From Chamaea fasciata (taxonomy: Eukaryota > Chordata > Aves > Passeriformes > Sylviidae), in NCBI GenBank assembly GCA_029207755.1, contig JARCOQ010000012.1, positions 21,687,740 through 21,751,739 of the forward strand: 64,000 nt of DNA, read 5' to 3'. Below, piece after piece: positions 589 through 63,209 of the stretch (positions within the stretch are counted from its first letter, which is position 1; the number at the start of each line of letters is the position of its first letter). A program made the translations under genes and the position numbers. The notes under the pieces are model-generated. The model made no database searches, had not been told where the DNA came from, and worked only from the letters and a program-made list of their open reading frames with translations.

Positions 589-827
589 GCTTGTAAACCT
601 CACTGCTATGTTATTGAACCCAGGGAAGGAGTGATCCCCGCCAGGGGTGATGTTCCTGTGACTGTCACAGCAACCCTGGATGACACTGGGGTTTTTGCTG
701 ATGCTCTCCAGCTGTTCATTGGGAACAGACTTTGGACCACCTCCACCCTCCTGGCTTTTGGCACTGGCACCACAATTGTCACAGACAAACCATTTGCCCC
801 GGAGCTCAACTTGGGATACCAATTCAG
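589..827 (+). CDS. HYDIN: HYDIN exon e15 of the upstream cassette
   Basis: The acceptor is TCTTACAG before 589 and the donor is CAG|GTAGGA. It is 239 nt, starts in phase 0 and ends two bases into a serine codon. It encodes the second half of an ASH domain (IEPREGVIPARGD, the usual x-P-x-x-G-x-I-x-P turn) and then the HYDIN signature TTIVTDKPFAPELNLG, which matches human TIVSDKPFAPELNLG. In cassette numbering it is residues 711-789 plus the split residue 790. It is identical to e15 of cassette 1 at 27338. Reading past the donor meets TAG at once, so the exon border is well placed. Confidence 0.9.
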
Positions 828-2499
828 GTAGGAGATCTCCCACTCCCACCTCTCCTTCTGTCTCAACAAGGAGCAGTTTTGCTGTAGTCCTTCAGGCACG
901 ATCTTCTTCAGTGTTCAAAGACCCTGACTCCTTCCCTGAAGGCAGAGATACCTTTAGAGACATGTGATGGCCAGTTGAGCGTTGCTAGGTACCCTCAAAA
1001 ACCACTGAAAGAGAAACCAGTTGCTCAATTGCCACTGAATTGCCTTCAGTTCTAACACATCTATGTCCTCACTTGGTCAAGTAATGGTCTCGCAGGCTCC
1101 CCCAGAACAAAAGGTTCCCAAAATGGCGCCTGGATGAGGCGGGCCCTCCGTGTGGCTGCGGGACCAAGGGAAGATGGCATCGCACCCTTCCCTTCCAAAA
1201 TGGCACCTGCCAGGCAAGCAGGGGCCCTGGGAGCAAATGGACAGGAGGGTGACGACCCCCCTGGGAAGGCAGGAGCCCGCAGAGCAGTTCCAGAGGCAGA
1301 TGGAAACTTGCTGGTTTGTGTGGGGCCTGCAGTGCCGCTGCCAACGCTTCCTCACGCTGCTCGTGGGCTCTGCTGCTGCCCTGCCTGCCCAGGACTGATG
1401 CTTGTGCGGGAGGCCAGAATGTTAGGGTGCCCTCTCAGGTGCATCACCTCTGGGTTTGACCGGCAGCCTCAGGATGGCCTAAAATATTAGCGAGGCAGCA
1501 TGATCAGAGGTGTTTGAAAAGCAAAACTGTTTTAATTAAGGTGAAAATAAGAAGCCATGCAGAAAAAAGAGAAAAAGCTGTGCCGAGTGCAAGGAGGACC
1601 TTTGCACTTGCTACAACACCCCAAAAATGCCCTGAGGATCTTGGTCTATTCTCTTAAGCATGTAACAATCCAGGCCGGATTCTTGGCATCCTGCCCAATA
1701 GAAATAGGAACAGGGCTTGAGGCACAGTCTCAAAGATCCAAGGGCTGCGTCCGTCCTGGCACAAGGCCAAAAAAGGTATCAAAACCTCTGGTTTTTACCT
1801 CATGAGTGAAACAAAGAATGGGACCCAAATCCTTCCCTTAAATGGAAGCCTCCTTGCCACTGTGGGGCTGCAAACCCTACCAGGTGAGGTACACTTCTAC
1901 ACAGGACCTTGCTCATTTTTCCGTTGCCAGCAGAGTTTGCAAAGTTCACTTCAAAACAGTTTCTGATTGCGAAATGAAGTTTCTACAAATGACCACCAGT
2001 GCAAAACCAAAGCTTCTACGAACGAGAGAGCCCCTGCTCCCCTGGTTTCCTCTCCTAGAGCAGACAGATGATTTCTAGCAGCTTGCTGGGATTGTCCAGA
2101 AACTTCCTCCGCGCTGGCTTTTAAAAATGCCTGCAATCATACCCCCGCACACAAGGGCCTCAGGTGCAGGATCTCAAAGATTCAATAACAGTTTCGGGTG
2201 CAGATTAATGCAAAATACAGTAACAGTATGAATCACCCCAGAACACACATTTTGGCGGAAAACACCAGATCCTGTTAGCCTGGCCTGGAAAATGCTACAT
2301 TACCATTAGAAACATATTCCTCTTTGCAATAACGACATCAGAAGGGCAGCTTATCAGACACTGTTCCCAGTCCACATTAAGAGCTGCAAATGAAGACGGT
2401 CTCCAAGCTATTAACAGCTCAGAATCCTCATTGGGAGCAATCTGATGACCAGGACAATAGCTTCTCCCATACTATTTTCCATTCTGGTTTCTCTTCTAG
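828..2499. other. Intron e15-e16, 1.67 kb
   Basis: There is no exon-like reading frame with splice sites. The 1134-1490 + strand ORF has no recognised similarity and overlaps opposite-strand ORFs of similar length, so it is taken as chance in GC-rich sequence. The copy-3 equivalent (54,635-54,658) has an unusually dense cluster of substitutions. Confidence 0.6.
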
Positions 2500-2758
2500 C
2501 CTCCTTCCCTGTGCTCGTCAGTTCAGACTAACAGATGGGGGCCACCACTTCCATCAGCTCTTCTGGAAGGCGGAATGTAACAGGCCAGCTGGGAAGGAGG
2601 GCCAGAGCACCTCAGCCCACAGTAGCCCCAAGGCCAAACGTGATTCCCAGAGGCCCAAACGTACGGCCCCCGTGTTTGGGCTGGAGCCGCTGTCAATGGA
2701 CCTGAAGCCAGGAGAGTCTGTGGACTTGGTGCTGCCAGGCTTCTCCCGCAAGGCGCAG
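2500..2758 (+). CDS. HYDIN: HYDIN exon e16 of the upstream cassette
   Basis: The acceptor is CTCTTCTAG before 2500 and the donor is CGCAG|GTGAGG. It is 259 nt; its first base completes the serine begun in e15, and it ends in phase 0 on a glutamine. It opens the next ASH domain (LTDGGHHFHQLFW, matching human LINKGRRIQQLFW), passes a basic and serine-rich linker (residues 815-847) and ends in the strand pair around FGLEPLSMDLKPGES. In human HYDIN the following exon starts near IVKEKLVCHAI; nothing like that follows here. The next HYDIN exon is e1 at 4548. Confidence 0.9.
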
Positions 2759-4547
2759 GTGAGGTCCCCACCACGGGCTGAGCTGGGGAAGCATCAGATC
2801 CCCTCCCCTGGGCTCGTTCCACAGTCCCTTGACATTTGCCTGGGGAAATGAGCCTGTTTGGCTCCCTTTGTGCAGCTCACAGTCAAAGCTCAGGGGCTGA
2901 GTCGTCTACGCTTTCTGCTGGAATCACTATCATTAGTGGCACTGGCACGGCAGGAAATGTTCTGAAACAGCCCTGGAATCAGATTGATGTAGCAGAAGCA
3001 GTAGGAGGCCTTTAGGTGCCACTTCAGGCTCCTGCTAAGATTCATCCAGCTCTGCTCAGATTTTCCAAAAGCAGCATGGTGCTCTGCTTTCCCCTTGGAG
3101 AACCACAGAACATCCAAAGCCATGTGCTCCTGTTTTGCAGTTTCCCAAGAGAGCTGAGAGGGAAAAAGTTGAAAAACGTCAGCAGTCGTGTTGGACTCTA
3201 AAGGGGAAAACTGAGACCATTTGAATTTCAGTCAGGGAAACATTTTCTTAAATGAGGCTTGTGCCAAGAGTGGGCTGGTGGGAAGAGACAGGAAGGACTC
3301 AAAATCATCTGGTTTAGACTTTTTGAGAGCATTTTGGTGCTCAGGGGTTGATATCTATGTGTTGAAAATGCATGTTTGCTGTGTCTGTGTATCCCAGAGA
3401 GCAGAACTTGGCCTGCTGGCTGCAAGCGGGAATGCCCAGCAGCCCAGCTTGCCTGCACAGGCAGCAAGAACCCCTGGAGAGCCAAGGTTGGCTTTTAATA
3501 CTGAAACCACACTGTGAGTCAGTGCTGGTCATGTTTTGAAATATTCCCCCCGCAGGCCCGGCCCCCCTCCCCAGGGCTAGCTCTGGAGAGGCTTTGGAGG
3601 AATATCTCCGAAGGGACAGGACAAAAGATTTCAAAAGAGGCTCTTACCCCCAGATTATTCCAAGTCGTTTATTCCTCAAAGGGGTCCAGGGGCCGAAAGA
3701 GAGAGAACAAAGAAATCCAGGGGTCTTATCTAGTCTCCTATTTTGGGAGGGTCCTGGCATTCAGCCAATTAGGTGTGGACATGTAGGGAGGAAATTCCAG
3801 AAGGGTCAAAAGGTGAGAGACCATTCCCCTAAAGAATTGCAAGGTTTCTCCAGGAGGAAAATGCCTTTGAAGCCCACAGTCAACAGGCACAACCTGTCTG
3901 TGTTTCCATCACTTTCGGGGAGGTGATTGCTGTAATCAGTTGATGATTCTTCCTTGCTGCTTTACTGGCGCTTTAAATTCTCTTTGTCATCTCCCTTTTT
4001 TAGGGATTGCTGTGTTCCTTCTTTTGCTTTTCAGGTTTGCTTTTGTTCCCAGTAAGGCCACAGTGTTTGGTCTCCTCTCTTGCTGCTCTGCCTGCATGAC
4101 TGTATCCCCCAGAACTGCCCTATCCAAAGCTGACCTGCTAGAAAGGAATTTCTTCCTCCCCGCAGGAGAATGTGCTGTTATGCTTTCAGGTAGCCCATTC
4201 CCTCCGTGGAACACGACTGCATAGCTGTGTGCAGGCAGAAATCAGCAGGTTTTTGGCCCTGTTGAATATGCAGATGATTTGGTTCAGGTGCTCTTGTCTC
4301 CATCCTGCCGGTGCTGACCTGCTCGGCCCTTCCTTCCCACCAGGCACTGCCCTACTGCCCCTGGCCAAAATGCTGGAGCCAGACAGAAGGGATTCAAGTT
4401 CACCCTTGGGAATTCTGTGCCTGTACCTCCACAGCAGAAAGGGCTTTGGAAAAGGGGTCAAGGAAGGACGTCACCAGGGCATGGACAGGTCTCCTCTTGT
4501 CCTGTTTCCTCAAGTGGCAAAATCATGGTTCCATGTCTTTCCTGCAG
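2759..4547. other. Duplication-junction intron (e16 to next e1), 1.79 kb
   Basis: In an unduplicated HYDIN gene e16 would be followed by further exons and e1 would be preceded by N-terminal exons. Neither set is found here. The ancestral breakpoint that joined the intron after e16 to the intron before e1 must therefore lie in this interval, or the missing exons were deleted later. The right half contains an LTR-like remnant at 3601-3925. Two AG sites followed by short frames open to a stop (2876 and 3141) could act as alternative terminal exons but show no family similarity. The equivalents are 29508-31296 and 56162-57950. Confidence 0.75.
3601..3925 (-). mobile_element. LTR-like retroelement fragment in the junction intron, copy 1
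   Basis: The stretch CAAAGGGGTCCAGGGGCC, followed by a long GAGAGAGAACAAAG-type run, GGGTCTTATCTAG, a CCAATTAGG box and GAAGCCCACAGTC, resembles the reverse complement of passerine endogenous-retrovirus LTRs. On the minus strand an AATAAA lies at about 3668-3673, as expected near an LTR R region. Borders and target duplication were not resolved. The assignment comes from memory of such LTRs, without a library search. No retroviral coding sequence is seen next to it. Confidence 0.45.
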
Positions 4548-4682
4548 AATCTTCAGGGGGTGCAGGTCTCCATGGAGAGCTCACCTTACTTCCAGCTGGC
4601 GGGCCCCAGTGATGCATGCCGTGCCGTGCCAGGAGGCGCCATTACCGATGTGCACGTCCACTTCACTCCTGACGAGAACAAG
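4548..4682 (+). CDS. HYDIN: HYDIN exon e1, cassette 1
   Basis: The acceptor is TTTCCTGCAG and the donor is AAG|GTGAGA. It is 135 nt, 45 codons, phase 0 at both ends (residues 1-45). SMESSPYFQL matches human VQESSPYFKI near residue 135, and FTPDENK matches FTPEENK. It supplies the rear strands of the first ASH domain; the front strands would be in an upstream exon that is missing from the unit. A symmetric phase-0 exon at this place is what allows e16 of the previous unit to splice in without a frameshift. Confidence 0.9.
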
Positions 4683-7600
4683 GTGAGACTGGAGGAGCCA
4701 AAACACAGATTTATCTCCAAAGCCATTGTTGTCCCTGCACTCTGGGTACAGCCCATGCTGTGAGCTTGGCTCCAGGCCGTGGGCAGGCAGCCTGCAGCCA
4801 GTCCCAGCTTGGCATGTGCTGTCAGGCCCTGCACCCAGGCCTGACAGGCCCTGCTTCCCCTCGCTGCACATTCCTCTGAGCATTCCCAAGGGAAGAAAGA
4901 TGCCCAGGGAACAGTAGGCAAACGGTAGAGGGGTGTTGATAGATGTCTGGCCATCTCTAGGTATAGTGGAAGGGGTTTCATTATTCTGCAAAGTACTAGA
5001 GGAACAAAGAGGTCAGAGAGCTTTCCGCCTTCCTGACGGGCAACAGCTTCCCTGCCTCACCCGGGGCTGGAGCAAGGACGGTGCTTTTTCACACCCTCTG
5101 TTCTCCAGCCTTGCGGCTGTGCTGTCCCAGAGCACAGCTGACCATGATACGGCTGCAAGGCCAGGGCAGAGGATGTGCTGTGCCCGTGGGCCCAGCCTGG
5201 CACAGGCACACTGAGCTCTAGGTGCCCTTAGTCAGCAGGAGCTTGGTGAGCTGCAGGGGACTTGGACACCTGCCTGAAAGAGCTCGTGTAGGGCAGGTAC
5301 AGCCTGCAGGCAGGCAGACCTGTGGGCCCAGAGCCGGTGGCAGCGACACTGCTGCGGCTCTGTCTTCATGCCTGTCACTGTGGCTGCTCTGTCAGCTGGC
5401 GCCCATTCCATGCCAATTGTGCTTTTGCGTGCAAGTTTGAACACCAGTGCCGAGGCCCTGGCAAGTCTGCTCTCAGCGCTGTGATCTGGAGGCTCGTTCA
5501 TACAGAGGGGTTTAGGACATGGCATGGAAGGGAGGAGGCCTTGCAGGGAAACAAAGAGAGGCTCTTTGCAACAGCATCCTGCTACCTCTTAGCACTGTTC
5601 TTCTCGTGACTTGGTTGGAGAGGCAAAATTAGAGGGGAGTTCTGAGCAAACAGATATTTCTACACCAGGCCAGAGGTCCAGGATCTCTTTGGGTGCAGCT
5701 GTTCTCTCAGTTTCCTTTTGCTGCTTAGATTCAGTTTAACACTTTGTCCTATTCTCAATCCGTGGGAATATAGTAACCTAAGGAGGAATGTCCTGTGTTC
5801 CCTAGCTCCATGTTCCTTAGAAGGGACTTAGGAATTATTTAACATCATTAAAATTGAGAGTAAAAATTATGGTGGCCCTGGGCACTTGTCTGTATGACCC
5901 AAGTGACACAAGAGCTTAATGCCACTGAGATAGGTTTTGCAAAGTGCACTGCTGCCTTTAAAATGTGAGATATTAGTAGAACTTATTGTTCATTTGGGGG
6001 TGGAATAGGTAAATTGATACCCTTGAAGGGATATAGGAAATGGCTTTTCTTCTGCCATGGAGATGGCACCAAATGACCTGTGCTGAGACAGTTTCTTTTC
6101 CTGCAGGTTTATTCCCATGAGCTCGTCTGCGTCAGTGGAGAGGAAAGGATAGTTGTGCCAATTCGGGCCATCCCTGCCCGAGCTATCCTGGACTTCCCAG
6201 ACGAGCTGGACTTCTCAAAGTGTCCGGTCAAGGGCAGCACCCGCAAGAGTCTGCTGATTCAGAATTGTGGTAGTGTGGCAGCTCATTACCAGCTGGGCAC
6301 CGAGAGGTGAGGCAGCTCATCTGTCCTTGTGCAAAACACCTTTGGGGGATAACAGAGTTGGGAAAGAACAACAAAAGGAACCAGAGCATGGGAGCTGCTG
6401 CCCTGCGTCGCCGGCTGGAAATGGGCAGGATGGATGGCATCTGCTCTTGCTTTCAGTGTTCTTAGCAGGATGCAGCCTTTGAGCTTTCTCTGCCCCAGAT
6501 TTCCTGGGGGGTGCTGGAACATGTTAGTTGCTGGCTTGCGCCCTCCTGAGCACAAGCAGCTTCTGAAATGGGTACTCACCACTGTCAGCCAAACAGACCC
6601 ATTCTCTGGGAGGACACAGGCACATGGCTTTCCAGTGGTGCCTGCATCAGATGCCCAACATGAGCTGTGTTGCAGGCAGCCGGTGCAGTTCCTGTTACTT
6701 AAAGCTGATCTGATTTCCCTTGTCAGCTGAGGGCATCAGTCCCCTCTTCTGTTCCACGATGAACCTTTGAAAGCCGGTTTAAAATTTCAAACACGTGCTT
6801 TAAATCTCTGAATAAGGTCGTCCCCCCTTTCATTGAGATCTCATTTTACATATTCTGAAGTTCCTGTGTTTCTGCTGTTTTTTCATTTTGGTTTGTGTTA
6901 AATGTTTGCCAAAAGATCATGAATTCTTCATTGGGAACTTTCATAAATGTCAAGCTCCTCCAAGGCCTATCAATACACCACATGCCCATAGGCATAGGCA
7001 CAGGTGTATTAGAAACATGAGACATTTAGTGACTATGTGAAAAGCAATTGGGCTGATTTAGAAGATAAAAGTATAGAATAACTTTCTCTAGAGGGGACCT
7101 CTGGAAATTGTCCGAGCAAATACGCTGCTCAAAGCAAGACCAGTGTCCGGGGATTGCAAGGGGCCATTGGGAGATCTGGAGTTGTCTTTAGATGCCATAC
7201 AAGGAAACAAACATACAAATGGACTAGTTAAAAAGCCGAAGAAGACCTATTAAAACCCCTCCATGACCTTATCTTTTCTGCCTGTCGGGTGCAGTAGTGA
7301 TTCATTGAAAGGGTAGATCTAACAGGATGAGAACTATCTTAAGGAACAGCTGACAATTAACTCACTATATTGCTCTAATCAAGCCATAAAAGGCCAAAAT
7401 TTATCCTGCCAGCCCCATCTCTTGGCAGTGGTTTTCATTTGGTTATTATAGCGTCAGGGATGTCTCCTTCACAGTCCTTCTTATCTGTGGGCTCAGGGAA
7501 CAGCTTAGTGATGTTGACTGAAATTCAGAGGAGTTAAGTTTAACTGTAGAGCTTGTGTCCTTGGGTCTTGGGGAGCCAGGTCTATATGAGAGATGACTGC

Positions 7601-10600
7601 TCCAGCAGGAACAGGGGAGTCTGGTGGGTACAGCCTGGGGTGGGATGTAGGAGATGCAAGGGCTGATTTGCACTCAGTTTTTCAGCCCTGACAACTGAAA
7701 CTTGGCTGGATCCTCTTCTCCTGGTAATTTGAAAATAAGAAGATATCTTCTTTCTCACGCAACCCCTGAGGTCACTCCCAGGAGTGTTATTCGCATCCTG
7801 CCATCTGAGGGCAGGAGTATGTAACATGGGGCAGGAGTGGGAAGGGAAGGGAAGGGAAGGGAAGGGAAGGGAAGGGAAGGGAAGGGAAGGGAAGGGAAGG
7901 GAAGGGAAGGGAAGGGAAGGGAAGGGAAGGGAAGGGAAGGGAAGGGAAGGGAAGGGAAGGGAAGGGAAGGGAAGGGAAGGGAAGGGAAGGGAAGGGAAGG
8001 GAAGGGAAGGGAAGGGAAGGGAAGGGAAGGGAAGGGAAGGGAAGGGAAGGGAAGGGAAGGGAAGGGAAGGGAAGGGAAGGGAAGGGAAGGGAAGGGAAGG
8101 GAAGGGAAGGGAAGGGAAGGGAAGGGAAGGGAAGGGAAGGGAAGGGGAGTGCTGAAGTGTGGCCAGGGACTCCCTTAACTGGCAGCTTCTCTTTCTGGCA
8201 AAATTCCTGACAAAACAATAAGAAAAAAATCCTGTGCCTTGCCCACACCAGGCACCGATCCCCCAAGCCCCAGCAGAGACCTGCAGCAGTGCTGGCTCAC
8301 CCTCGGGGCAGATGTGGGAGCTCGTACAGTAATCGGGCTCCGGGGCTGCTGGGGCCTTGTCTTTCCTCCTCTCTCCCCAAAGTCTCACATCCAGCACATA
8401 AACATTGCTGGCCCAAGGCTTCTCCATCAGCCACTAGTGATGTTCTCACTAGTGGTAATGGAGCAGGTCAGGCCCATAACTGCAGCAATAGGTCCTTAGT
8501 GAGCAGAACCTGAAGCAAGTTCATCAGCTGTCACTACTGACATGAATGAAATTCAGCTTGCCAGATGTTCTCTATATTTTTGTGTGTGATAAGTTCATCA
8601 CCAAACTCCCCAGAACACCCTTTCTGTGCACAGATTGACCACCAGCAAAGCACTGAGGAACTTTTGTTTCCTCAGTGGGGCTGTGGAAGAGCACAAAGCC
8701 CAGCAACTTCTGGGCAGAAGCACATTTCACCTGAGCTGTCCCTGAGCATCAAAGCACGGAGTCTTGTGTTTGTCAGGCAAGAACTGTTCACCTGGTGACC
8801 AATCCTAATTGCTCCTGTTACATCCAAAGTGCACCAAGACATTTGCGTAATTATTTCCAACACATTGCGCAGAGTTTGTCTGGTGAGCCAAGCAAACAGT
8901 TGCCAGCCTGGATGACAACCCAGGGCCCCAGACTGCACTGCTGGTAAATACACAAAACCCTCCTGTTCTGCCTCCTCGATGTGCTCCTGCTAATGGTGCT
9001 TCATATGGCTGGGATTGGATCCTTCAGATTGTAAATGGCATCCTCCTTTTGGGTCTTGTTTCCATGTCACTGTATTGCTCTAATCTGCATTTGCACTCTT
9101 TCAGAGTTTTGATTGCTCCTTTTTGTAGAGCAGCTTTCATTGAAATGCTGACAAAATGTGCTAATTCAGGATCTTTTCAAGGTAAAATAAACCAAAGAGC
9201 CACGCTGCAAATTCAACAGTAGTTATTCCGTGGTCTTCAAGAGAAAGTTCCTTCTCCCTGTCTGATTCCTAGGCTGTAATCTCACAAGAGAGATAGTGCC
9301 CTAACATTTGCATCTCTTGAGAGGAAGTTTATAGGTAGCAGGAAATGAGAAATTCCTGAGGCAGTCAGCGTCAAGTTATGCATGCAGATAGCTCTTAACT
9401 CTCTCTGTGCTTTTCACAAACCATTCTCTGATGGGATTGCTGGCAGTCAGAAGGCTGGATGCAGAGTATGGGGGAGATTAGGTCGTTTTATCCCACAGGA
9501 TCTTCTGAGGGCTGGATCTCCTCAGAAGTGGGTCAGTAGCTGTTTCTGATCCTGGCTGTTCTGTCTGTCTTGGCCGTAGTTTGTTTGCTCCCTGCTTGCC
9601 CAAGTGAGCTGAAGTGACCTGCACTGCAGAAAGAATGTCATGGCCAGAATTCCCCCCAAGTCCTGATCCTCTCTTTGTGTTGCAGTCCTTTCTCCGTGGT
9701 TCCAGCCGAAGGAATTCTGGGCCCTGGTCACACCATGCAGGTGACAGTGGGATTTCACCCGCTGACGTGCGGTGACCATTTCGGGTCCCTGGTGGCGCGC
9801 TGCATAGGTGAGTGCTGGGCAACGCATGGGACACAGGACAGTTCTCCACCATCACTCCCTGTTCATCCCCCTCAATTCCCTCTAGATGTACCTCCTCTGT
9901 TCCAGCTCTGCCCCAAAGAAAACTGAAATAGCTGGTGTTTAAATGGTTGAAAAAGTGGATCCCCTCTAACAGGGCTGAGATTTTTGGAATTCTGTTTTGC
10001 TGGGTGTTGCAGAGTGGAGGAAGGAGGAACCCTGATTCTCCACTACTGTGTGGCTACGCCTGGGTGAAGTTTTATTTTACTCCTGGGCAGTGCTGTATGT
10101 GAGCTGCGAGGTCTCCATCAGACTCTCTCCAATGCAGTGTATTTCTTGCACACCTCTGTCCTGTATGCCGCTTCTCCACTGGCTTGTCACAGACCCTTTT
10201 ACTATGTTGCCCTCTACACATCCATGCAGTTTTTGCCTAATAACATCTTCAGGCCCTCAAGTTCCTGTATGGTGACAAATCAAGACAAATTTTTCCTCGT
10301 CCCCATTTCCCAGGCCGTTCATGCTGTTGCAAACCTCTCACATCTCCCATTTGATTTCTAGACTGAGGAATCCCATTCAGACTTCATATAGAAGCTGCTC
10401 TGTACTTATTAATCTTTCCTTGTCCTTTTGTATTTAACCTGAAGTGCTCCATCTTGGTTTTTGAGATCAGGACAATATGAAATATTTCAAGACTGATGGG
10501 GCTGTGGGTTTGGACAGGAAGATGACGATGATGATGATTTTTATGGTGTTCATTTTGTAGTGGTTTGTCATATTGCAAAGCCAGGCCGGTTGTGTTTCCT

Positions 10601-13356: not shown

Positions 13357-13388
<32 letters not shown>

Positions 13389-31296: not shown

Positions 31297-31431
31297 AATC
31301 TTCAGGGGGTGCAGGTCTCCATGGAGAGCTCACCTTACTTCCAGCTGGCGGGCCCCAGTGATGCATGCCGTGCCGTGCCAGGAGGCGCCATTACCGATGT
31401 GCACGTCCACTTCACTCCTGACGAGAACAAG
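31297..31431 (+). CDS. HYDIN: HYDIN exon e1, cassette 2
   Basis: 45 codons, phase 0 at both ends, identical to cassette 1. It is the predicted splice partner of e16 at 29249-29507. Confidence 0.9.
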
Positions 31432-40096: not shown

Positions 40097-40128
<32 letters not shown>

Positions 40129-55100: not shown

Positions 55101-56161
55101 ATAGAAATAGGAATAGGGCTTGAGGCACAGTCTCAAAGATCCAAGGGCTGCGTCCGTCCTGGCACAAGGCCAAAAAAGGTATCAAAACCTCTGGTTTTTA
55201 CCTCATGAGTGAAACAAAGAATGGAACCCAAATCCTTCCCTTAAATGGAAGCCTCCTTGCCACTGTGGGGCTGCAAACCCTACCAGGTGAGGTACACTTC
55301 TACACAGGACCTTGCTCATTTTTCCGTTGCCAGCAGAGTTTGCAAAGTTCACTTCAAAACAGTTTCTGATTGCGAAATGAAGTTTCTACAAATGACCACC
55401 AGTGCAAAACCAAAGCTTCTATGAACGAGAGAGCCCCTGCTCCCCTGGTTTCCTCTCCTAGAGCAGACAGATGATTTCTAGCAGCTTGCTGGGATCGTCC
55501 AGAAACTTCCTCCGCGCTGGCTTTTAAAAATGCCTGCAATCATACCCCCTCACACAAGGGCCTCAGGTGCAGGATCTCAAAGATTCAATAACAGTTTCGG
55601 GTGCAGATTAATGCAAAATACAGTAACAGTATGAATCACCCCAGAACACACATTTTGGAGGAAAACACCAGATCCTGTTAGCCTGGCCTGGAAAATGCTA
55701 CATTACCATTAGAAACATATTCCTCCTTGCAATAACGACATCAGAAGGGCAGCTTATCAGACACTGTTCCCGGTCCACATTAAGAGCTGCAAATGAAGAC
55801 GGTCTCCAAGCTATTAACAGCTCAGAATCCTCATTGGGAGCAATCTGATGACCAGGACAATAGCTTCTCCCATACTATTTTCCATTCTGGTTTCTCTTCT
55901 AGCCTCCTTCCCTGTGCTCATCAGTTCAGACTAACAGATGGGGGCCACCACTTCCATCAGCTCTTCTGGAAGGTGGAATGTAACAGGCCAGCTGGGAAGG
56001 AGGGCCAGAGCACCTCAGCCCACAGTAGCCCCAAGGCCAAACGTGATTCCCAGAGGCGCAAACGTACGGCCCCCGTGTTTGGGCTGGAGCCGCTGTCAAT
56101 GGACCTGAAGCCAGGAGAGTCTGTGGACTTGGTGCTGCCAGGCTTCTCCCGCAAGGCGCAG
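31297..56161 (+). CDS. HYDIN: HYDIN exon cassette 2 (16 exons, complete, internal part of a gene)
   Basis: Span of e1 to e16 joined at 31297-31431, 32856-33055, 36425-36546, 37849-38053, 39767-39959, 41217-41316, 42559-42677, 43854-44077, 45906-45973, 48029-48237, 49050-49150, 50394-50529, 50977-51141, 52005-52157, 53992-54230 and 55903-56161. Every border keeps GT/AG and the same phase as cassette 1, and the total is again 876 codons without a stop. Amino-acid changes relative to cassette 1, in cassette numbering: R334G (e7), L685P and D700G (e14), P733H and F779L (e15), R796H, A814V and P842R (e16). Five silent changes lie in e8, e10 (two), e12 and e14. L685P and P733H introduce or remove proline near predicted beta strands. 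Confidence 0.88.
32856..33055 (+). CDS. HYDIN: HYDIN exon e2, cassette 2
   Basis: 200 nt, phase 0 to 2, identical to cassette 1, including the ARAILDFPDEL motif. Confidence 0.92.
34588..34882. repeat. (GGGAA)59 microsatellite, copy 2
   Basis: Uninterrupted, 295 bp, two repeats shorter than in copies 1 and 3. This length change is the main difference between the left 11 kb of copies 1 and 2. Confidence 0.98.
35170..35194. repeat. Perfect inverted repeat, copy 2
   Basis: Unchanged copy of the 10-bp stem and 5-base loop at 8431-8455. Confidence 0.8.
36425..36546 (+). CDS. HYDIN: HYDIN exon e3, cassette 2
   Basis: 122 nt, identical to cassette 1, with ATAG|GTGAGT donor. Confidence 0.9.
37849..38053 (+). 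CDS. HYDIN: HYDIN exon e4, cassette 2
   Basis: 205 nt, identical to cassette 1, with the same weak AG|GTTGGT donor. The first mismatches between copies 1 and 2 after a long identical stretch follow 22 bases beyond this exon. Confidence 0.88.
38285..38714 (-). mobile_element. CR1-type LINE ORF2 remnant, copy 2
   Basis: Counterpart of 11546-11975 with a few substitutions. Decayed in the same way, so its decay predates the duplication. Confidence 0.65.
39767..39959 (+). CDS. HYDIN: HYDIN exon e5, cassette 2
   Basis: 193 nt, identical to cassette 1; charged helical insert of the third ASH domain. Confidence 0.86.
39982..40168. repeat. CTT/CTC pyrimidine tract, copy 2
   Basis: Same position and apparently the same length as 13242-13428, in contrast to the length change in the GGGAA tract. 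Confidence 0.92.
41217..41316 (+). CDS. HYDIN: HYDIN exon e6, cassette 2
   Basis: 100 nt, identical to cassette 1. Confidence 0.9.
42040..42320 (-). mobile_element. CR1 LINE 3' end, copy 2
   Basis: Counterpart of 15300-15580, same orientation and truncation. Confidence 0.9.
42559..42677 (+). CDS. HYDIN: HYDIN exon e7, cassette 2
   Basis: 119 nt. AGA in cassette 1 is GGA here, changing residue 334 from Arg to Gly just after the GEG turn that ends the third ASH domain. Confidence 0.9.
42922..42945. repeat. Perfect inverted repeat, copy 2
   Basis: Counterpart of 16184-16207, stem intact. Confidence 0.7.
43854..44077 (+). CDS. HYDIN: HYDIN exon e8, cassette 2
   Basis: 224 nt; one silent change (ACG to ACA, Thr) relative to cassette 1. 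Confidence 0.92.
45583..45642 (-). mobile_element. MIR/CORE-SINE-like fragment, copy 2
   Basis: Counterpart of 18931-18990, unchanged. Confidence 0.45.
45906..45973 (+). CDS. HYDIN: HYDIN exon e9, cassette 2
   Basis: 68 nt, identical to cassette 1. Confidence 0.9.
46164..46841 (-). mobile_element. LTR-like element with CpG-rich segment, copy 2
   Basis: Counterpart of 19512-20189 with few substitutions; the CpG sites of the central part are largely kept. Confidence 0.5.
48029..48237 (+). CDS. HYDIN: HYDIN exon e10, cassette 2
   Basis: 209 nt, two silent changes (TCG to TCC Ser, CGG to AGG Arg). It shows the same apparent shortening after NTS as cassette 1, so that shortening is older than the duplication. 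Confidence 0.88.
49050..49150 (+). CDS. HYDIN: HYDIN exon e11, cassette 2
   Basis: 101 nt, identical to cassette 1. Confidence 0.92.
50394..50529 (+). CDS. HYDIN: HYDIN exon e12, cassette 2
   Basis: 136 nt, one silent change (GCC to GCG, Ala). Confidence 0.88.
50977..51141 (+). CDS. HYDIN: HYDIN exon e13, cassette 2
   Basis: 165 nt, identical to cassette 1. Confidence 0.9.
52005..52157 (+). CDS. HYDIN: HYDIN exon e14, cassette 2
   Basis: 153 nt. CTA to CCA changes residue 685 Leu to Pro and GAT to GGT changes residue 700 Asp to Gly; one further change is silent (TTT to TTC). The proline falls in the strand after EFG, which may weaken the fold. Confidence 0.82.
53992..54230 (+). CDS. HYDIN: HYDIN exon e15, cassette 2
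   Basis: 239 nt. CCT to CAT (residue 733 Pro to His) and TTT to CTT (779 Phe to Leu) relative to cassette 1. The second alters the otherwise highly conserved TDKPFAPELNLG motif. Confidence 0.9.
54635..54658. other. Dense substitution patch in copy 3
   Basis: Six differences from copies 1 and 2 within 24 bases of the e15-e16 intron, against a background of about one per few hundred bases. See findings. Confidence 0.85.
55903..56161 (+). CDS. HYDIN: HYDIN exon e16, cassette 2
   Basis: 259 nt with three amino-acid changes relative to cassette 1: residue 796 Arg to His, 814 Ala to Val, 842 Pro to Arg. Borders and phase are unchanged. Confidence 0.9.
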
Positions 56162-57950
56162 GTGAGGTCCCCACCACGGGCTGAGCTGGGGAAGCATCAG
56201 ATCCCCTCCCCTGGGCTCGTTCCACAGTCCCTTGACATTTGCCTGGGGAAATGAGCCTGTTTGGCTCCCTTTGTGCAGCTCACAGTCAAAGCTCAGGGGC
56301 TGAGTCGTCTACGCTTTCTGCTGGAATCACTATCATTAGTGGCACTGGCACGGCAGGAAATGTTCTGAAACAGCCCTGGAATCAGATTGATGTAGCAGAA
56401 GCAGTAGGAGGCCTTTAGGTGCCACTTCAGGCTCCTGCTAAGCTTCATCCAGCTCTGCTCAGGTTTTCCAAAAGCAGCATGGTGCTCTGCTTTCCCTTTG
56501 GAGAACCACAGCACATCCAAAGCCATGTGCTCCTGTTTTGCAGTTTCCCAAGAGAGCTGAGAGGGAAAAAGTTGAAAAACGTCAGCAGTCGTGTTGGACT
56601 CTAAAGGGGAAAACTGAGACCATTTGAATTTCAGTCAGGGAAACATTTTCTTAAATGAGGCTTGTGCCAAGAGTGGGCTGGTGGGAAGAGACAGGAAGGA
56701 CTCAAAATCATCTGGTTTAGACTTTTTGAGAGCATTTTGGTGCTCAGGGGTTGATATCTATGTGTTGAAAATGCATGTTTGCTGTGTCTGTGTATCCCAG
56801 AGAGCAGAACTTGGCCTGCTGGCTGCAAGCGGGAATGCCCAGCAGCCCAGCTTGCCTGCACAGGCAGCAAGAACCCCTGGAGAGCCAAGGTTGGCTTTTA
56901 ATACTGAAACCACACTGTGAGTCAGTGCTGGTCATGTTTTGAAATATTCCCCCCGCAGGCCCGGCCCCCCTCCCCAGGGCTAGCTCTGGAGAGGCTTTGG
57001 AGGAATATCTCCGAAGGGACAGGACAAAAGATTTCAAAAGAGGCTCTTACCCCCAGATTATTCCAAGTCGTTTATTCCTCAAAGGGGTCCAGGGGCCGAA
57101 AGAGAGAGAACAAAGAAATCCAGGGGTCTTATCTAGTCTCCTATTTTGGGAGGGTCCTGGCATTCAGCCAATTAGGTGTGGACATGTAGGGAGGAAATTC
57201 CAGAAGGGTCAAAAGGCGAGAGACCATTCCCCTAAAGAATTGCAAGGTTTCTCCAGGAGGAAAATGCCTTTGAAGCCCACAGTCAACAGGCACAACCTGT
57301 CTGTGTTTCCATCACTTTCGGGGAGGTGATTGCTGTAATCAGTTGATGATTCTTCCTTGCTGCTTTACTGGCGCTTTAAATTCTCTTTGTCATCTCCCTT
57401 TTTTAGGGATTGCTGTGTTCCTTCTTTTGCTTTTCAGGTTTGCTTTTGTTCCCAGTAAGGCCACAGTGTTTGGTCTCCTCTCTTGCTGCTCTGCCTGCAT
57501 GACTGTATCCCCCAGAACTGCCCTATCCAAAGCTGACCTGCTAGAAAGGAATTTCTTCTTCCCCACAGGAGAATGTGCTGTTATGCTTTCAGGTAGCCCA
57601 TTCCCTCCGTGGAACACGACTGCATAGCTGTGTGCAGGCAGAAATCAGCAGGTTTTTGGCCCTGTTGAATATGCAGATGATTTGGTTCAGGTGCTCTTGT
57701 CTCCATCCTGCCGGTGCTGACCTGCTCGGCCCTTCCTTCCCACCAGGCACTGCCCTACTGCCCCTGGCCAAAATACTGGAGCCAGACAGAAGGGATTCAA
57801 GTTCACCCTTGGGAATTCTGTGCCTGTACCTCCACAGCAGAAAGGGCTTTGGAAAAGGGGTCAAGGAAGGACGTCACCAGGGCATGGACAGGTCTCCTCT
57901 TGTCCTGTTTCCTCAAGTGGCAAAATCATGGTTCCATGTCTTTCCTGCAG
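56162..57950. other. Duplication-junction intron between cassettes 2 and 3
   Basis: Third example of the junction interval, same length (1,789 bp) and same content as 2759-4547. Confidence 0.75.
57004..57328 (-). mobile_element. LTR-like fragment in the junction intron, copy 3
   Basis: Counterpart of 3601-3925. Confidence 0.45.
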
Positions 57951-58085
57951 AATCTTCAGGGGGTGCAGGTCTCCATGGAGAGCTCACCTTACTTCCAGCT
58001 GGCGGGCCCCAGTGATGCATGCCGTGCCGTGCCAGGAGGCGCCATTACCGATGTGCACGTCCACTTCACTCCTGACGAGAACAAG
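57951..58085 (+). CDS. HYDIN: HYDIN exon e1, cassette 3
   Basis: 135 nt, identical to the other two copies. Confidence 0.9.
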
Positions 58086-61000
58086 GTGAGACTGGAGGAG
58101 CCAAAACACAGAATTATCTCCAAAGCCATTGTTGTCCCTGCACTCTGGGTACAGCCCATGCTGTGAGCTTGGCTCCAGGCCGTGGGCAGGCAGCCTGCAG
58201 CCAGTCCCAGCTTGGCATGTGCTGTCAGGCCCTGCACCCAGGCCTGACAGGCCCTGCTTCCCCTCGCTGCACATTCCTCTGAGCATTCCCAAGGGAAGAA
58301 AGATGCCCAGGGAACAGTAGGCAAACGGTAGAGGGGTGTTGATAGATGTCTGGCCATCTCTAGGTATAGTGGAAGGGGTTTCATTATTCTGCAAAGTACT
58401 AGAGGAACAAAGAGGTCAGAGAGCTTTCCGCCTTCCTGACGGGCAACAGCTTCCCTGCCTCACCCGGGGCTGGAGCAAGGACGGTGCTTTTTCACACCCT
58501 CTGTTCTCCAGCCTTGGGCTGTGCTGTCCCAGAGCACAGCTGACCATGATACGGCTGCAAGGCCAGGGCAGAGGATGTGCTGTGCCCGTGGGCCCAGCCT
58601 GGCACAGGCACACTGAGCTCTAGGTGCCCTTAGTCAGCAGGAGCTTGGTGAGCTGCAGGGGACTTGGACACCTGCCTGAAAGAGCTCGTGTAGGGCAGGT
58701 ACAGCCTGCAGGCAGGCAGACCTGTGGGCCCAGAGCCGGTGGCAGCGACACTGCTGCGGCTCTGTCTTCATGCCTGTCACTGTGGTTGCTCTGTCAGCTG
58801 GCGCCCATTCCATGCCAATTGTGCTTTTGCGTGCAAGTTTGAACACCAGTGCCGAGGCCCTGGCAAGTCTGCTCTCAGCGCTGTGATCTGGAGGCTCGTT
58901 CATACAGAGGGGTTTAGGACATGGCATGGAAGGGAGGAGGCCTTGCAGGGAAACAAAGAGAGGCTCTTTCCAACAGCATCCTGCTACCTCTTAGCACTGT
59001 TCTTCTCGTGACTTGGTTGGAGAGGCAAAATTAGAGGGGAGTTCTGAGCAAACAGATATTTCTACACCAGGCCAGAGGTCCAGGATCTCTTTGGGTGCAG
59101 CTGTTCTCTCAGTTTCCTTTTGCTGCTTAGATTCAGTTTAACACTTTGTCCTATTCTCAATCCGTGGGAATATAGTAACCTAAGGAGGAATGTCCTGTGT
59201 TCCCTAGCTCCATGTTCCTTAGAAGGGACTTAGGAATTATTTAACATCATTAAAATTGAGAGTAAAAATTATGGTGGCCCTGGGCACTTGTCTGTATGAC
59301 CCAAGTGACACAAGAGCTTAATGCCACTGAGATAGGTTTTGCAAAGTGCACTGCTGCCTTTAAAATGTGAGATATTAGTAGAACTTATTGTTCATTTGGG
59401 GGTGGAATAGGTAAATTGATACCCTTGAAGGGATATAGGAAATGGCTTTTCTTCTGCCATGGAGATGGCACCAAATGACCTGTGCTGAGACAGTTTCTTT
59501 TCCTGCAGGTTTATTCCCATGAGCTCGTCTGCGTCAGTGGAGAGGAAAGGATAGTTGTGCCAATTCGGGCCATCCCTGCCCGAGCTATCCTGGACTTCCC
59601 AGACGAGCTGGACTTCTCAAAGTGTCCGGTCAAGGGCAGCACCCGCAAGAGTCTGCTGATTCAGAATTGTGGTAGTGTGGCAGCTCATTACCAGCTGGGC
59701 ACCGAGAGGTGAGGCAGCTCATCTGTCCTTGTGCAAAACACCTTTGGGGGATAACAGAGTTGGGAAAGAACAACAAAAGGAACCAGAGCATGGGAGCTGC
59801 TGCCCTGCGTCGCCGGCTGGAAATGGGCAGGATGGATGGCATCTGCTCTTGCTTTCAGTGTTCTTAGCAGGATGCAGCCTTTGAGCTTTCTCTGCCCCAG
59901 ATTTCCTGGGGGGTGCTGGAACATGTTAGTTGCTGGCTTGCGCCCTCCTGAGCACAAGCAGCTTCTGAAATGGGTACTCACCACTGTCAGCCAAACAGAC
60001 CCATTCTCTGGGAGGACACAGGCACATGGCTTTCCAGTGGTGCCTGCATCAGATGCCCAACATGAGCTGTGTTGCAGGCAGCCGGTGCAGTTCCTGTTAC
60101 TTAAAGCTGATCTGATTTCCCTTGTCAGCTGAGGGCATCAGTCCCCTCTTCTGTTCCACGATGAACCTTTGAAAGCCGGTTTAAAATTTCAAACACGTGC
60201 TTTAAATCTCTGAATAAGGTCGTGCCCCCTTTCATTGAGATCTCATTTTACATATTCTGAAGTTCCTGTGTTTCTGCTGTTTTTTCATTTTGGTTTGTGT
60301 TAAATGTTTGCCAAAAGATCATGAATTCTTCATTGGGAACTTTCATAAATGTCAAGCTCCTCCAAGGCCTATCAATACACCACATGCCCATAGGCATAGG
60401 CACAGGTGTATTAGAAACATGAGACATTTAGTGACTATGTGAAAAGCAATTGGGCTGATTTAGAAGATAAAAGTATAGAATAACTTTCTCTAGAGGGGAC
60501 CTCTGGAAATTGTCCGAGCAAATACGCTGCTCAAAGCAAGACCAGTGTCCGGGGATTGCAAGGGGCCATTGGGAGATCTGGAGTTGTCTTTAGATGCCAT
60601 ACAAGGAAACAAACATACAAATGGACTAGTTAAAAAGCCGAAGAAGACCTATTAAAACCCCTCCATGACCTTATCTTTTCTGCCTGTCGGGTGCAGTAGT
60701 GATTCATTGAAAGGGTAGATCTAACAGGATGAGAACTATCTTAAGGAACAGCTGACAATTAACTCACTATATTGCTCTAATCAAGCCATAAAAGGCCAAA
60801 ATTTATCCTGCCAGCCCCATCTCTTGGCAGTGGTTTTCATTTGGTTATTATAGCGTCAGGGATGTCTCCTTCACAGTCCTTCTTATCTGTGGGCTCAGGG
60901 AACAGCTTAGTGATGTTGACTGAAATTCAGAGGAGTTAAGTTTAACTGTAGAGCTTGTGTCCTTGGGTCTTGGGGAGCCAGGTCTATATGAGAGATGACT

Positions 61001-63209
61001 GCTACAGCAGGAACAGGGGAGTCTGGTGGGTACAGCCTGGGGTGGGATGTAGGAGATGCAAGGGCTGATTTGCACTCAGTTTTTCAGCCCTGACAACTGA
61101 AACTTGGCTGGATCCTCTTCTCCTGGTAATTTGAAAATAAGAAGATATCTTCTTTCTCACGCAACCCCTGAGGTCACTCCCAGGAGTGTTATTCACATCC
61201 TGCCATCTGAGGGCAGGAGTATGTAACATGGGGCAGGAGTGGGAAGGGAAGGGAAGGGAAGGGAAGGGAAGGGAAGGGAAGGGAAGGGAAGGGAAGGGAA
61301 GGGAAGGGAAGGGAAGGGAAGGGAAGGGAAGGGAAGGGAAGGGAAGGGAAGGGAAGGGAAGGGAAGGGAAGGGAAGGGAAGGGAAGGGAAGGGAAGGGAA
61401 GGGAAGGGAAGGGAAGGGAAGGGAAGGGAAGGGAAGGGAAGGGAAGGGAAGGGAAGGGAAGGGAAGGGAAGGGAAGGGAAGGGAAGGGAAGGGAAGGGAA
61501 GGGAAGGGAAGGGAAGGGAAGGGAAGGGAAGGGAAGGGAAGGGAAGGGGAGTGCTGAAGTGTGGCCAGGGACTCCCTTAACTGGCAGCTTCTCTTTCTGG
61601 CAAAATTCCTGACAAAACAATAAGAAAAAAATCCTGTGCCTTGCCCACACCAGGCACTGATCCCCCAAGCCCCAGCAGAGACCTGCAGCAGTGCTGGCTC
61701 ACCCTCGGGGCAGATGTGGGAGCTCGTACAGTAATCGGGCTCCGGGGCTGCTGGGGCCTTGTCTTTCCTCCTCTCTCCCCAAAGTCTCACATCCAGCACA
61801 TAAACATTGCTGGCCCAAGGCTTCTCCATCAGCCACTAGTGATGTTCTCACTAGTGGTAATGGAGCAGGTCAGGCCCATAACTGCAGCAATAGGTCCTTA
61901 GTGAGCAGAACCTGAAGCAAGTTCATCAGCTGTCACTACTGACATGAATGAAATTCAGCTTGCCAGATGTTCTCTATATTTTTGTGTGTGATAAGTTCAT
62001 CACCAAACTCCCCAGAACACCCTTTCTGTGCACAGATTGACCACCAGCAAAGCACTGAGGAACTTTTGTTTCCTCAGTGGGGCTGTGGAAGAGCACAAAG
62101 CCCAGCAACTTCTGGGCAGAAGCACATTTCACCTGAGCTGTCCCTGAGCATCAAAGCACGGAGTCTTGTGTTTGTCAGGCAAGAACTGTTCACCTGGTGA
62201 CCAATCCTAATTGCTCCTGTTACATCCAAAGTGCACCAAGACATTTGCGTAATTATTTCCAACACATTGCGCAGAGTTTGTCTGGTGAGCCAAGCAAACA
62301 GTTGCCAGCCTGGATGACAACCCAGGGCCCCAGACTGCACTGCTGGTAAATACACAAAACCCTCCTGTTCTGCCTCCTCGATGTGCTCCTGCTAATGGTG
62401 CTTCATATGGCTGGGATTGGATCCTTCAGATTGTAAATGGCATCCTCCTTTTGGGTCTTGTTTCCATGTCACTGTATTGCTCTAATCTGCATTTGCACTC
62501 TTTCAGAGTTTTGATTGCTCCTTTTTGTAGAGCAGCTTTCATTGAAATGCTGACAAAATGTGCTAATTCAGGATCTTTTCAAGGTAAAAGAAACCAAAGA
62601 GCCACGCTGCAAATTCAACAGTAGTTATTCCGTGGTCTTCAAGAGAAAGTTCCTTCTCCCTGTCTGATTCCTAGGCTGTAATCTCACAAGAGAGATAGTG
62701 CCCTAACATTTGCATCTCTTGAGAGGAAGTTTATAGGTAGCAGGAAATGAGAAATTCCTGAGGCAGTCAGCGTCAAGTTATGCATGCAGATAGCTCTTAA
62801 CTCTCTCTGTGCTTTTCACAAACCATTCTCTGATGGGATTGCTGGCAGTCAGAAGGCTGGATGCAGAGTATGGGGGAGATTAGGTCGTTTTATCCCACAG
62901 GATCTTCTGAGGGCTGGATCTCCTCAGAAGTGGGTCAGTAGCTGTTTCTGATCCTGGCTGTTCTGTCTGTCTTGGCCGTAGTTTGTTTGCTCCCTGCTTG
63001 CCCAAGTGAGCTGAAGTGACCTGCACTGCAGAAAGAATGTCATGGCCAGAATTCCCCCCAAGTCCTGATCCTCTCTTTGTGTTGCAGTCCTTTCTCCGTG
63101 GTTCCAGCCGAAGGAATTCTGGGCCCTGGTCACACCATGCAGGTGACAGTGGGATTTCACCCGCTGACGTGCGGTGACCATTTCGGGTCCCTGGTGGCGC
63201 GCTGCATAG
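57951..63209 (+). CDS. HYDIN: HYDIN exon cassette 3, first three exons (cut by window end)
   Basis: e1 to e3 at 57951-58085, 59509-59708 and 63088-63209. The encoded residues are identical to those of cassettes 1 and 2 by eye. The cassette continues beyond the right edge; e4 would be expected roughly 1.3 kb after e3. Confidence 0.87.
59509..59708 (+). CDS. HYDIN: HYDIN exon e2, cassette 3
   Basis: 200 nt, identical to the other two copies. A 1-base deletion in the preceding intron (near 58516) shifts coordinates by one. Confidence 0.92.
61241..61545. repeat. (GGGAA)61 microsatellite, copy 3
   Basis: Uninterrupted, 305 bp, same repeat number as copy 1. Confidence 0.98.
61833..61857. repeat. 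Perfect inverted repeat, copy 3
   Basis: Unchanged copy of 8431-8455. Confidence 0.8.
63088..63209 (+). CDS. HYDIN: HYDIN exon e3, cassette 3
   Basis: 122 nt, identical to the other copies. It is the last exon visible before the window ends. Confidence 0.9.

What the first reader, a model, noticed from the sequence alone, without database searches (positions are those of the whole stretch)
589..63209. Tandem HYDIN exon cassettes that are closed in frame: a possible giant gene with an 876-residue repeat
Seen: each 26.7-kb unit has 16 exons totalling 2,628 nt (876 codons) with no stop. e16 ends in phase 0 and the next unit's e1 starts in phase 0, so splicing can run from unit to unit without frameshift across all 37 exons in the window. 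No start exon, terminal exon or gene boundary is recognised between units. Known: HYDIN is an ASH-domain protein of the axonemal central pair. Inference: the array may be an internal expansion of HYDIN, giving a protein with extra blocks of about seven ASH domains per unit, rather than separate genes. Each cassette alone lacks the N-terminus and the last four fifths of HYDIN.
Basis: partly seen in the sequence, partly recalled or inferred. Interest (0 to 1): 0.92.

Follow-up and report, generated by a model that had tools for sequence, protein, structure and literature searches.

The report
HYDIN-like gene with eighteen exon cassettes
This stretch of a songbird chromosome is the middle of one HYDIN-like gene copy in which the same block of 16 exons occurs 18 times in a row; of eight blocks read in full, all drift like their introns and three carry frame or splice-site damage, so the giant protein is probably not made intact.

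Summary
In detail: 37 of 37 exons have AG/GT ends, each 16-exon cassette is 2,628 nt, and the chain is open for 2,070 codons. The window's own genome settles the context. The cassette belongs to an oscine HYDIN-like clade, not to HYDIN itself. The window lies inside copy 20 of 24 head-to-tail gene copies on contig C12. That copy has first exons at 21.474 Mb, 18 cassettes, then e17 and later exons from 21.961 Mb; its sisters have 1-7 cassettes. All nine seams sampled are the same join of the intron after e16 to the intron before e1, with 3 nt of shared sequence. The giant protein is doubtful: cassettes 1 and 3 carry a frameshifting insertion, acceptors of e8 or e12 are lost in 3 of 8 cassettes read, and exons diverge as much as introns (0.55% vs 0.50%) with replacement changes near neutral. 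Best reading: an intragenic 26.7-kb coding VNTR, likely spread by unequal exchange, open mainly because it is young. Expression is untested.

The parts
589..827 (+). e15 of cassette 8 (of 18)
2500..2758 (+). e16 of cassette 8
2759..4547 (+). seam intron between cassettes 8 and 9; first 95 nt match the intron after the gene's last e16 (100%), nt 93-1789 match the intron before the gene's first e1 (99.5%)
2851..2853 (+). duplication breakpoint, shared AGC
4548..4682 (+). e1 of cassette 9
6107..6306 (+). e2 of cassette 9
9686..9807 (+). e3 of cassette 9
11110..11314 (+). e4 of cassette 9
13027..13219 (+). e5 of cassette 9 (site of the +G frameshift in cassettes 1 and 3 of the same gene, outside the window)
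14477..14576 (+). e6 of cassette 9
15819..15937 (+). e7 of cassette 9
17117..17340 (+). e8 of cassette 9; HYDIN Ig-like/ASH domain
19254..19321 (+). e9 of cassette 9
21377..21585 (+). e10 of cassette 9; lacks 8 residues that the one-cassette protein P0123 has
22397..22497 (+). e11 of cassette 9
23741..23876 (+). e12 of cassette 9
24324..24488 (+). e13 of cassette 9
25352..25504 (+). e14 of cassette 9
27338..27576 (+). e15 of cassette 9
29249..29507 (+). e16 of cassette 9
29600..29602 (+). breakpoint in the seam intron 29508-31296
31297..31431 (+). e1 of cassette 10
32856..33055 (+). e2 of cassette 10
36425..36546 (+). e3 of cassette 10
37849..38053 (+). e4 of cassette 10
39767..39959 (+). e5 of cassette 10
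41217..41316 (+). e6 of cassette 10
42559..42677 (+). e7 of cassette 10
43854..44077 (+). e8 of cassette 10
45906..45973 (+). e9 of cassette 10
48029..48237 (+). e10 of cassette 10
49050..49150 (+). e11 of cassette 10
50394..50529 (+). e12 of cassette 10
50977..51141 (+). e13 of cassette 10
52005..52157 (+). e14 of cassette 10
53992..54230 (+). e15 of cassette 10
55903..56161 (+). e16 of cassette 10
56254..56256 (+). breakpoint in the seam intron 56162-57950
57951..58085 (+). e1 of cassette 11
59509..59708 (+). e2 of cassette 11
63088..63209 (+). e3 of cassette 11

Best explanation
The window is the middle of one oscine HYDIN-like gene copy whose 26.7-kb, 16-exon block occurs 18 times head to tail, most likely by unequal exchange after one intronic duplication, and its giant protein is probably not made intact. 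Shown: the gene has single-copy 5' exons, then 18 e16 exons, then e17 and later exons. Shown: the seam intron joins the first 95 nt of the intron after e16 to the last 1,697 nt of the intron before e1, with 3 nt of shared sequence, and all nine seams sampled are the same. Both flanking introns are phase 0, so any number of undamaged cassettes stays in frame. Inferred: misaligned cassettes and gene copies then exchanged unequally, giving 1 to 18 cassettes in 24 neighbouring copies. Shown for the eight cassettes read in full: exons diverge as fast as introns, replacement changes are near the neutral ratio, and three cassettes are damaged. Inferred: the open frame in the window reflects youth and copying rather than selection for a repeat protein.
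For: Own-genome census on C12: 24 5' exons (27 matches in the genome, 33 of 33 candidates scored), 23 copies of the large exon behind e17 (query residues 95-202; 114 of 144 candidates scored), 72 e16 exons (79 matches, 83 of 83 scored). Cassettes per copy: 1 in copies 1-9, then 2,3,2,3,6,3,4,7,4,6,18,2,1,1,1. Copy 20: first coding exon from 21,474,051 by match to P0122, next exon 21,474,779-901 ending in phase 0, six complete cassettes back to back in the fetched 200 kb, last e16 21,960,201-459 and e17 from 21,961,091. Seam and breakpoint. Lesions in 3 of 8 complete cassettes. Neutral drift: variable sites 38 of 2,628 exon and 298 of 21,833 intron (p = 0.72); 26 replacement and 12 silent against an expected 2.46 to 1 (p = 0.72). 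Tree placing it with oscine HYDIN-like proteins.
Against: The window's own two complete cassettes and five of the eight read are undamaged, and all 72 e16 matches of the cluster are free of stops. The e12 acceptor loss may be harmless, which would leave two clearly damaged cassettes. Eight cassettes that share alleles by exchange give little power to see weak selection. Two exons after e17 look constrained between copies: 1-4 of 437 exon changes against 18-24 of 937 intron changes, seven loci against copy 20, so the gene class is not simply dead; but over the whole protein, P0122 and P0123 differ about as much outside the cassette (67 of 1,195 and 43 of 833) as inside it (51 of 876). Ten of 18 cassettes were not read in full. 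No RNA was seen.
Confidence: 0.78

Rival explanations
1. Functional giant protein: the 18 cassettes would be spliced and translated through, giving about 18,000 residues with some 126 ASH-like domains (18 x 7, arithmetic).
For: Single transcription-unit layout, phase-0 seams, 5 of 8 cassettes read undamaged. One NCBI model, P0121, already joins e16 to e1 twice in what is likely this species.
Against: Frameshift in cassettes 1 and 3, lost acceptors in 1, 3 and 5; no constraint seen; seams cut ASH domains. P0121 is marked LOW QUALITY and starts e1 six codons late.
Confidence: 0.08
2. Cassette skipping: multi-cassette copies would make mRNAs of ordinary size that include one cassette only, since e16 of any cassette can join e17 in frame. 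This is compatible with the best explanation.
For: All seams are phase 0. NCBI proteins of this species fall in clusters of 12 and 9 member sequences whose representatives (P0122, P0123) have one cassette, against one single-member cluster with several (P0121).
Against: Only the cluster representatives were seen; the search took proteins of 2,158-6,865 residues; P0122 is itself marked LOW QUALITY; gene models are predictions. No RNA was seen. Nothing in the sequence favours skipping over joining the nearest cassette.
Confidence: 0.3
3. Separate small genes, one per cassette, each with its own start and end.
For: An in-frame ATG lies five codons before e1 and a stop follows e16 after 30 codons when the intron is read through; the swallow model P0003 starts in that intron.
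Against: The seam intron is only two pieces of ordinary introns, holds no AATAAA or ATTAAA on the + strand, and the gene's 5' and 3' exons lie outside the array.
Confidence: 0.02
4. Assembly artefact: the cassette number would be inflated by misassembly.
For: Near-identical 26.7-kb units are hard to assemble; false duplications are a reported problem of genome assemblies, the zebra finch among them (PMC9516828, listing and abstract start).
Against: The eight cassettes read differ from each other by 0.1-0.7% in exons and 0.2-0.7% in introns, some have private variants, and 24 copies show graded counts with consistent internal spacings.
Confidence: 0.08

Closest known systems
Songbird HYDIN-related duplicates HYDINL1-5 (PMC4377847; five HYDIN passages)
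   Same: Partial HYDIN relatives on chromosome 11, listed as songbird-, passerine- or zebra-finch-specific, from the 5' part of the gene
   Different: The passages describe separate truncated copies, perhaps cut short by assembly gaps; none speaks of a multi-exon block repeated inside one gene
LPA kringle IV type 2 coding VNTR (PMC11462820; abstract and passages)
   Same: Multi-exon block repeated in frame inside one gene, 1 to about 40 units
   Different: 5.6 kb with two exons per unit and a known protein; here 26.7 kb with 16 exons, and no protein shown
Nebulin triplicate region (PMC9109913; listing and abstract start)
   Same: Block of eight exons repeated inside a giant gene, prone to copy-number change
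   Different: Three copies, expressed in muscle; here up to 18 copies and no constraint seen
Human HYDIN2 (PMC5345166; abstract and outline)
   Different: Moved to another chromosome with a new promoter; here tandem and inside one gene
HYDIN homologues on the songbird germline-restricted chromosome (PMC10387091; one passage)
   Same: HYDIN-type genes duplicated and variable in copy number in songbirds
   Different: Other chromosome; the passage speaks of gene copy number, not of internal cassettes

Membership tests
HYDIN (orthologue) | Sequence match to HYDIN over the block | tested here: met
   9ijj chain 4G residues 178-1058, E = 2.4e-241
HYDIN (orthologue) | Groups with HYDIN orthologues in a tree | tested here: not met
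   Falls in a separate 15-row clade, 100/100; P0043 of the likely same species falls with HYDIN (31 rows chosen by hand)
Oscine HYDIN-like family | Groups with oscine HYDIN-like proteins | tested here: met
   identity 63-72% to the ten such rows taken, 41-48% to the twelve bird rows that fall with HYDIN
Oscine HYDIN-like family | Exons before e1 and after e16 of the same family in the same gene | tested here: met
Intragenic coding VNTR | Multi-exon unit repeated between single-copy 5' and 3' exons of one gene | tested here: met
Intragenic coding VNTR | Unit flanked by introns of the same phase | tested here: met
   e1 begins and e16 ends in phase 0
Intragenic coding VNTR | Unit number varies | tested here: met
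   1 to 18 among 24 neighbouring gene copies; variation among individuals was not testable
Intragenic coding VNTR | Repeats are translated | not testable with these tools
   No RNA or protein data; the frameshift in cassettes 1 and 3 argues against it
Row of separate genes | Own start and end exons at each unit | tested here: not met
   No 5' exon (33 of 33 candidates scored) and no exon after e16 (114 of 144 scored) within the 18-cassette stretch; seam intron made of two known intron pieces

The most novel reading that the evidence does not exclude
At least one multi-cassette HYDIN-like copy makes a protein with two or more cassettes, so that a sperm-tail-type protein changes length by whole 876-residue blocks between neighbouring genes of one bird, most likely a wrentit, whose sperm are unusually short and tadpole-like.
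Probability: 0.18. Interest if true: 0.93.

Novelty: new variant of a known kind. Interest (0 to 1): 0.64.

Why it matters
It is an internal repeat of very large size: 26.7 kb and 16 exons per unit, up to 18 units in one gene, with its founding breakpoint readable to the base and a graded series of 1 to 18 units in neighbouring copies. It shows how phase-0 introns let a gene grow by whole exon blocks without breaking its frame, and how such growth may outrun selection. If any multi-cassette copy is translated, it would be an axonemal-type protein of variable length. The likely host, the wrentit, has unusual sperm (PMC12310291), which makes a link to flagellar function testable; that link is speculation here.

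Tried and rejected
Considered and dropped. (1) Internal expansion of HYDIN itself: the tree puts the cassette in another clade. (2) Open frame as proof of function: about one stop is expected at this divergence. (3) Faster change of cassette exons than of the rest of the gene: suggested by e14-e16 (18 fixed changes of 651, 16 of them replacements, p = 0.07 for the replacement excess) against two exons after e17, but the whole-protein comparison showed no difference, so it is not claimed. (4) In one search the rows with L009 are invalid, since that locus seems to lie in the other orientation (54% mismatch); they were dropped and not redone. (5) In one search, intron columns with a gap and 5 columns on either side were left out, and the extra-G column of e5 is not in the exon count. 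(7) A count of the e5 frameshift allele over all 72 cassettes could not be done (search not answered).
Full report
What was claimed.

The window compares with itself as head-to-tail units at 99.46-99.84% identity. The exon model gives 16 exons, 2,628 nt, 876 codons, no stop, phase 0 at both ends. Across the window there are 37 exons, 37 of 37 with AG and GT at their ends, and an open chain of 2,070 codons. Three of ten exon-bearing stretches scanned pass the cut-off of the Pfam HYDIN/VesB/CFA65-like Ig domain, and the whole cassette matches residues 178-1058 of the 5,154-residue chain 9ijj_4G, 'hydrocephalus-inducing protein', at E = 2.4e-241.

Which gene. A protein search scored 7,992 candidates, gave 152 matches and listed the best 120. 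The best are oscine 'hydrocephalus-inducing protein-like' proteins. A maximum-likelihood tree of 31 hand-picked rows puts the cassette in a 15-row clade (100/100) of oscine HYDIN-like proteins, next to P0122 and P0123; P0043 falls with HYDIN orthologues instead. Identity to the cassette is 63-72% for the ten rows of that clade taken and 41-48% for the twelve bird rows that fall with HYDIN. The contig that holds the window, C12, is 24,058,687 bases long. The same length is given for the contig of P0043, P0121, P0122, P0123 and P0125, all named Chamaea fasciata, the wrentit. The species is therefore inferred, not stated by the genome tool. Songbird HYDIN duplicates on chromosome 11, all partial, were described in 2014 (PMC4377847, passages), and HYDIN homologues occur on the songbird germline-restricted chromosome (PMC10387091, one passage).

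The surroundings. The window is C12:21,687,740-21,751,739 of a 1.19-Gb genome. Three protein searches map the family there: the exon before e1 (27 matches, 33 of 33 candidates scored), the exons after e16 (114 matches, 114 of 144 candidates scored) and e16 (79 matches, 83 of 83 scored). On C12 between 19.30 and 22.31 Mb they form 24 head-to-tail gene copies with 72 copies of e16. The cassettes per copy are 1 in each of copies 1-9, then 2, 3, 2, 3, 6, 3, 4, 7, 4, 6, 18, 2, 1, 1, 1. Copy 17 has seven cassettes and no exon after e16 that the search found; it runs into copy 18. The seven e16 matches outside this cluster are three on C232, one each at C12 17.80 and 2.69 Mb, and two distant ones at 16.12 and 9.48 Mb.

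The window's gene. It is copy 20. By match to P0122 its first coding exon starts at 21,474,051, and the next, 21,474,779-901, ends in phase 0 before GTAAGT. In the 200 kb fetched (21,440,001-21,640,000) six complete cassettes follow back to back. The last of 18 e16 exons is at 21,960,201-459 and e17 follows from 21,961,091. No 5' exon and no exon after e16 was found between. The window is cassettes 8 (end), 9, 10 and 11 (start). If every cassette were joined, the product would have about 18,000 residues (arithmetic from P0122 and 18 x 876).

How it arose. The seam intron, 1,789 nt, is a join. Its first 95 nt equal the start of the intron after the last e16 (100%), and its nt 93-1789 match the intron before the first e1 (99.5%). 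The two pieces share three letters, AGC, at window 2851-2853. The same 33-letter join occurs at all nine seams sampled (three in the window, six in the 200 kb) and not after the last e16. This is the mark of one founding duplication with ends in two introns; both introns are phase 0, so the frame is kept at any copy number. The spread from 1 to 18 cassettes in neighbouring copies, with shared variants between distant cassettes, fits unequal exchange and conversion. That step is inferred.

Does it encode a working giant protein? Eight complete cassettes of the 18 were read (1-6, 9, 10). Five are undamaged. Cassettes 1 and 3 carry one extra G in e5 that shifts the frame to a stop after 282 codons. 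The acceptor AG of e8 is AA in cassettes 1 and 3, and that of e12 is AA in 3 and 5. The e12 change may be harmless: an AG 36 nt upstream keeps the frame, and NCBI's model P0121 shows the matching extra residues. Exons differ between cassettes by 0.550% on average and introns by 0.498%; variable sites are 38 of 2,628 and 298 of 21,833 (p = 0.72). There are 26 replacement and 12 silent changes against an opportunity of 2.46 to 1, at an assumed transition weight of 4 (p = 0.72). One exon gap interval was found against 33 in introns (23 outside simple or tangled contexts), not a clear deficit. In e14-e16, one single-cassette copy differs from all eight cassettes at 18 of 651 exon sites (16 replacements, 2 silent) and 77 of 3,505 intron sites (exon against intron p = 0.39). 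These results give no sign of constraint on the cassettes. Against this reading, two exons after e17 look conserved between seven other loci and copy 20, though the whole-protein comparison of P0122 and P0123 shows similar divergence inside and outside the cassette.

Protein shape. AlphaFold2 on the relative P0002 (30 rows, mean pLDDT 73, pTM 0.37) places the start of e1 (residue 24) after the first two strands of one ASH domain, and the end of e16 (residue 904, mapped) before the last two strands of another. Joining e16 to e1 would therefore make a hybrid domain at each seam, with about six whole ASH domains between. This is read from strand order and is inference.

What annotation says. NCBI proteins of this species fall in three clusters that match the seam region: 12 member sequences represented by the one-cassette P0122 (marked LOW QUALITY), nine represented by the one-cassette P0123, and P0121 alone, with several cassettes and marked LOW QUALITY. 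Only the representatives were seen, and models longer than 6,865 residues were outside the search. P0122 ends by running into the first exons of the next copy, which begins 2.4 kb after the last exon matched in the previous copy.

Comparison with known kinds. It is built like an intragenic coding VNTR such as LPA KIV-2 (5.6 kb, two exons, 1 to about 40 units; PMC11462820, abstract and passages) or the nebulin triplicate block (eight exons, three copies; PMC9109913, listing), with a larger unit. Human HYDIN2 is an incomplete HYDIN duplication with relaxed selection but on another chromosome (PMC5345166, abstract). Searches for an earlier report were made; no title or abstract start listed speaks of an internal cassette repeat in a HYDIN-like gene. 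The library holds open-licence papers only.

A lead. The wrentit has tadpole-like sperm, 37.94 um long against 82.75 um in Sylviidae (PMC12310291, passages); the word HYDIN does not occur in that paper's main text. HYDIN's role in the axonemal central pair is recalled. Whether relaxed demands on the flagellum allowed this array to spread is untested.

Noticed in passing
C12:19,970,676-21,997,302 (gene copies 9-20): Inner copies are about 19.5 kb shorter behind e17 than outer copies (about 34.1 against 53.5 kb from the large exon to the next 5' exon), and P0122 lacks several hundred residues that P0123 has. Of the 12 multi-cassette copies, 10 are of this inner class, copy 21 has the outer 3' end and copy 17 could not be classed.
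   Followed up: partly
window 21377-21585 (e10) and 48029-48237: The eight cassettes read lack 8 residues (24 nt) of an ASH strand that the one-cassette protein P0123 keeps (NTSRVS-DDG against NTSRVPVTFKLRVPDDG).
   Followed up: partly
last cassette of copies 11, 13, 14, 15, 16, 18, 20: The spacing to the last cassette is 28.9-29.4 kb instead of about 26.7 kb, so the 3'-most cassette there likely carries 2-3 kb of extra DNA; not so in copies 10, 12, 17, 19, 21.
   Followed up: no
C12:20,930,578-21,130,856 (copy 17): Seven cassettes with no e17 found and only 13.1 kb from the last e16 to the next 5' exon instead of 37 kb: likely a deletion that fuses copies 17 and 18.
   Followed up: no
C12:2,665,976-2,694,126 and C12:17,797,810-17,832,219 (-); C232: Further HYDIN-like copies outside the cluster: a diverged one at 2.69 Mb (79% in e16), one in reverse at 17.80 Mb (87%), and three e16 on contig C232.
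   Followed up: no
window 7839-8149, 34588-34888, 61241-61551; 13240-13460: Purine-rich repeat of short units (reads as GKGRE repeats, so near (GGGAA)n) in introns of each unit, and a pyrimidine-rich tract read in the first unit; possible fragile or recombination-prone sites.
   Followed up: no
literature: The likely host, the wrentit, is one of five songbirds named as having tadpole-like short sperm (PMC12310291, passages), which makes a HYDIN-like array there worth comparing with the other four.
   Followed up: partly
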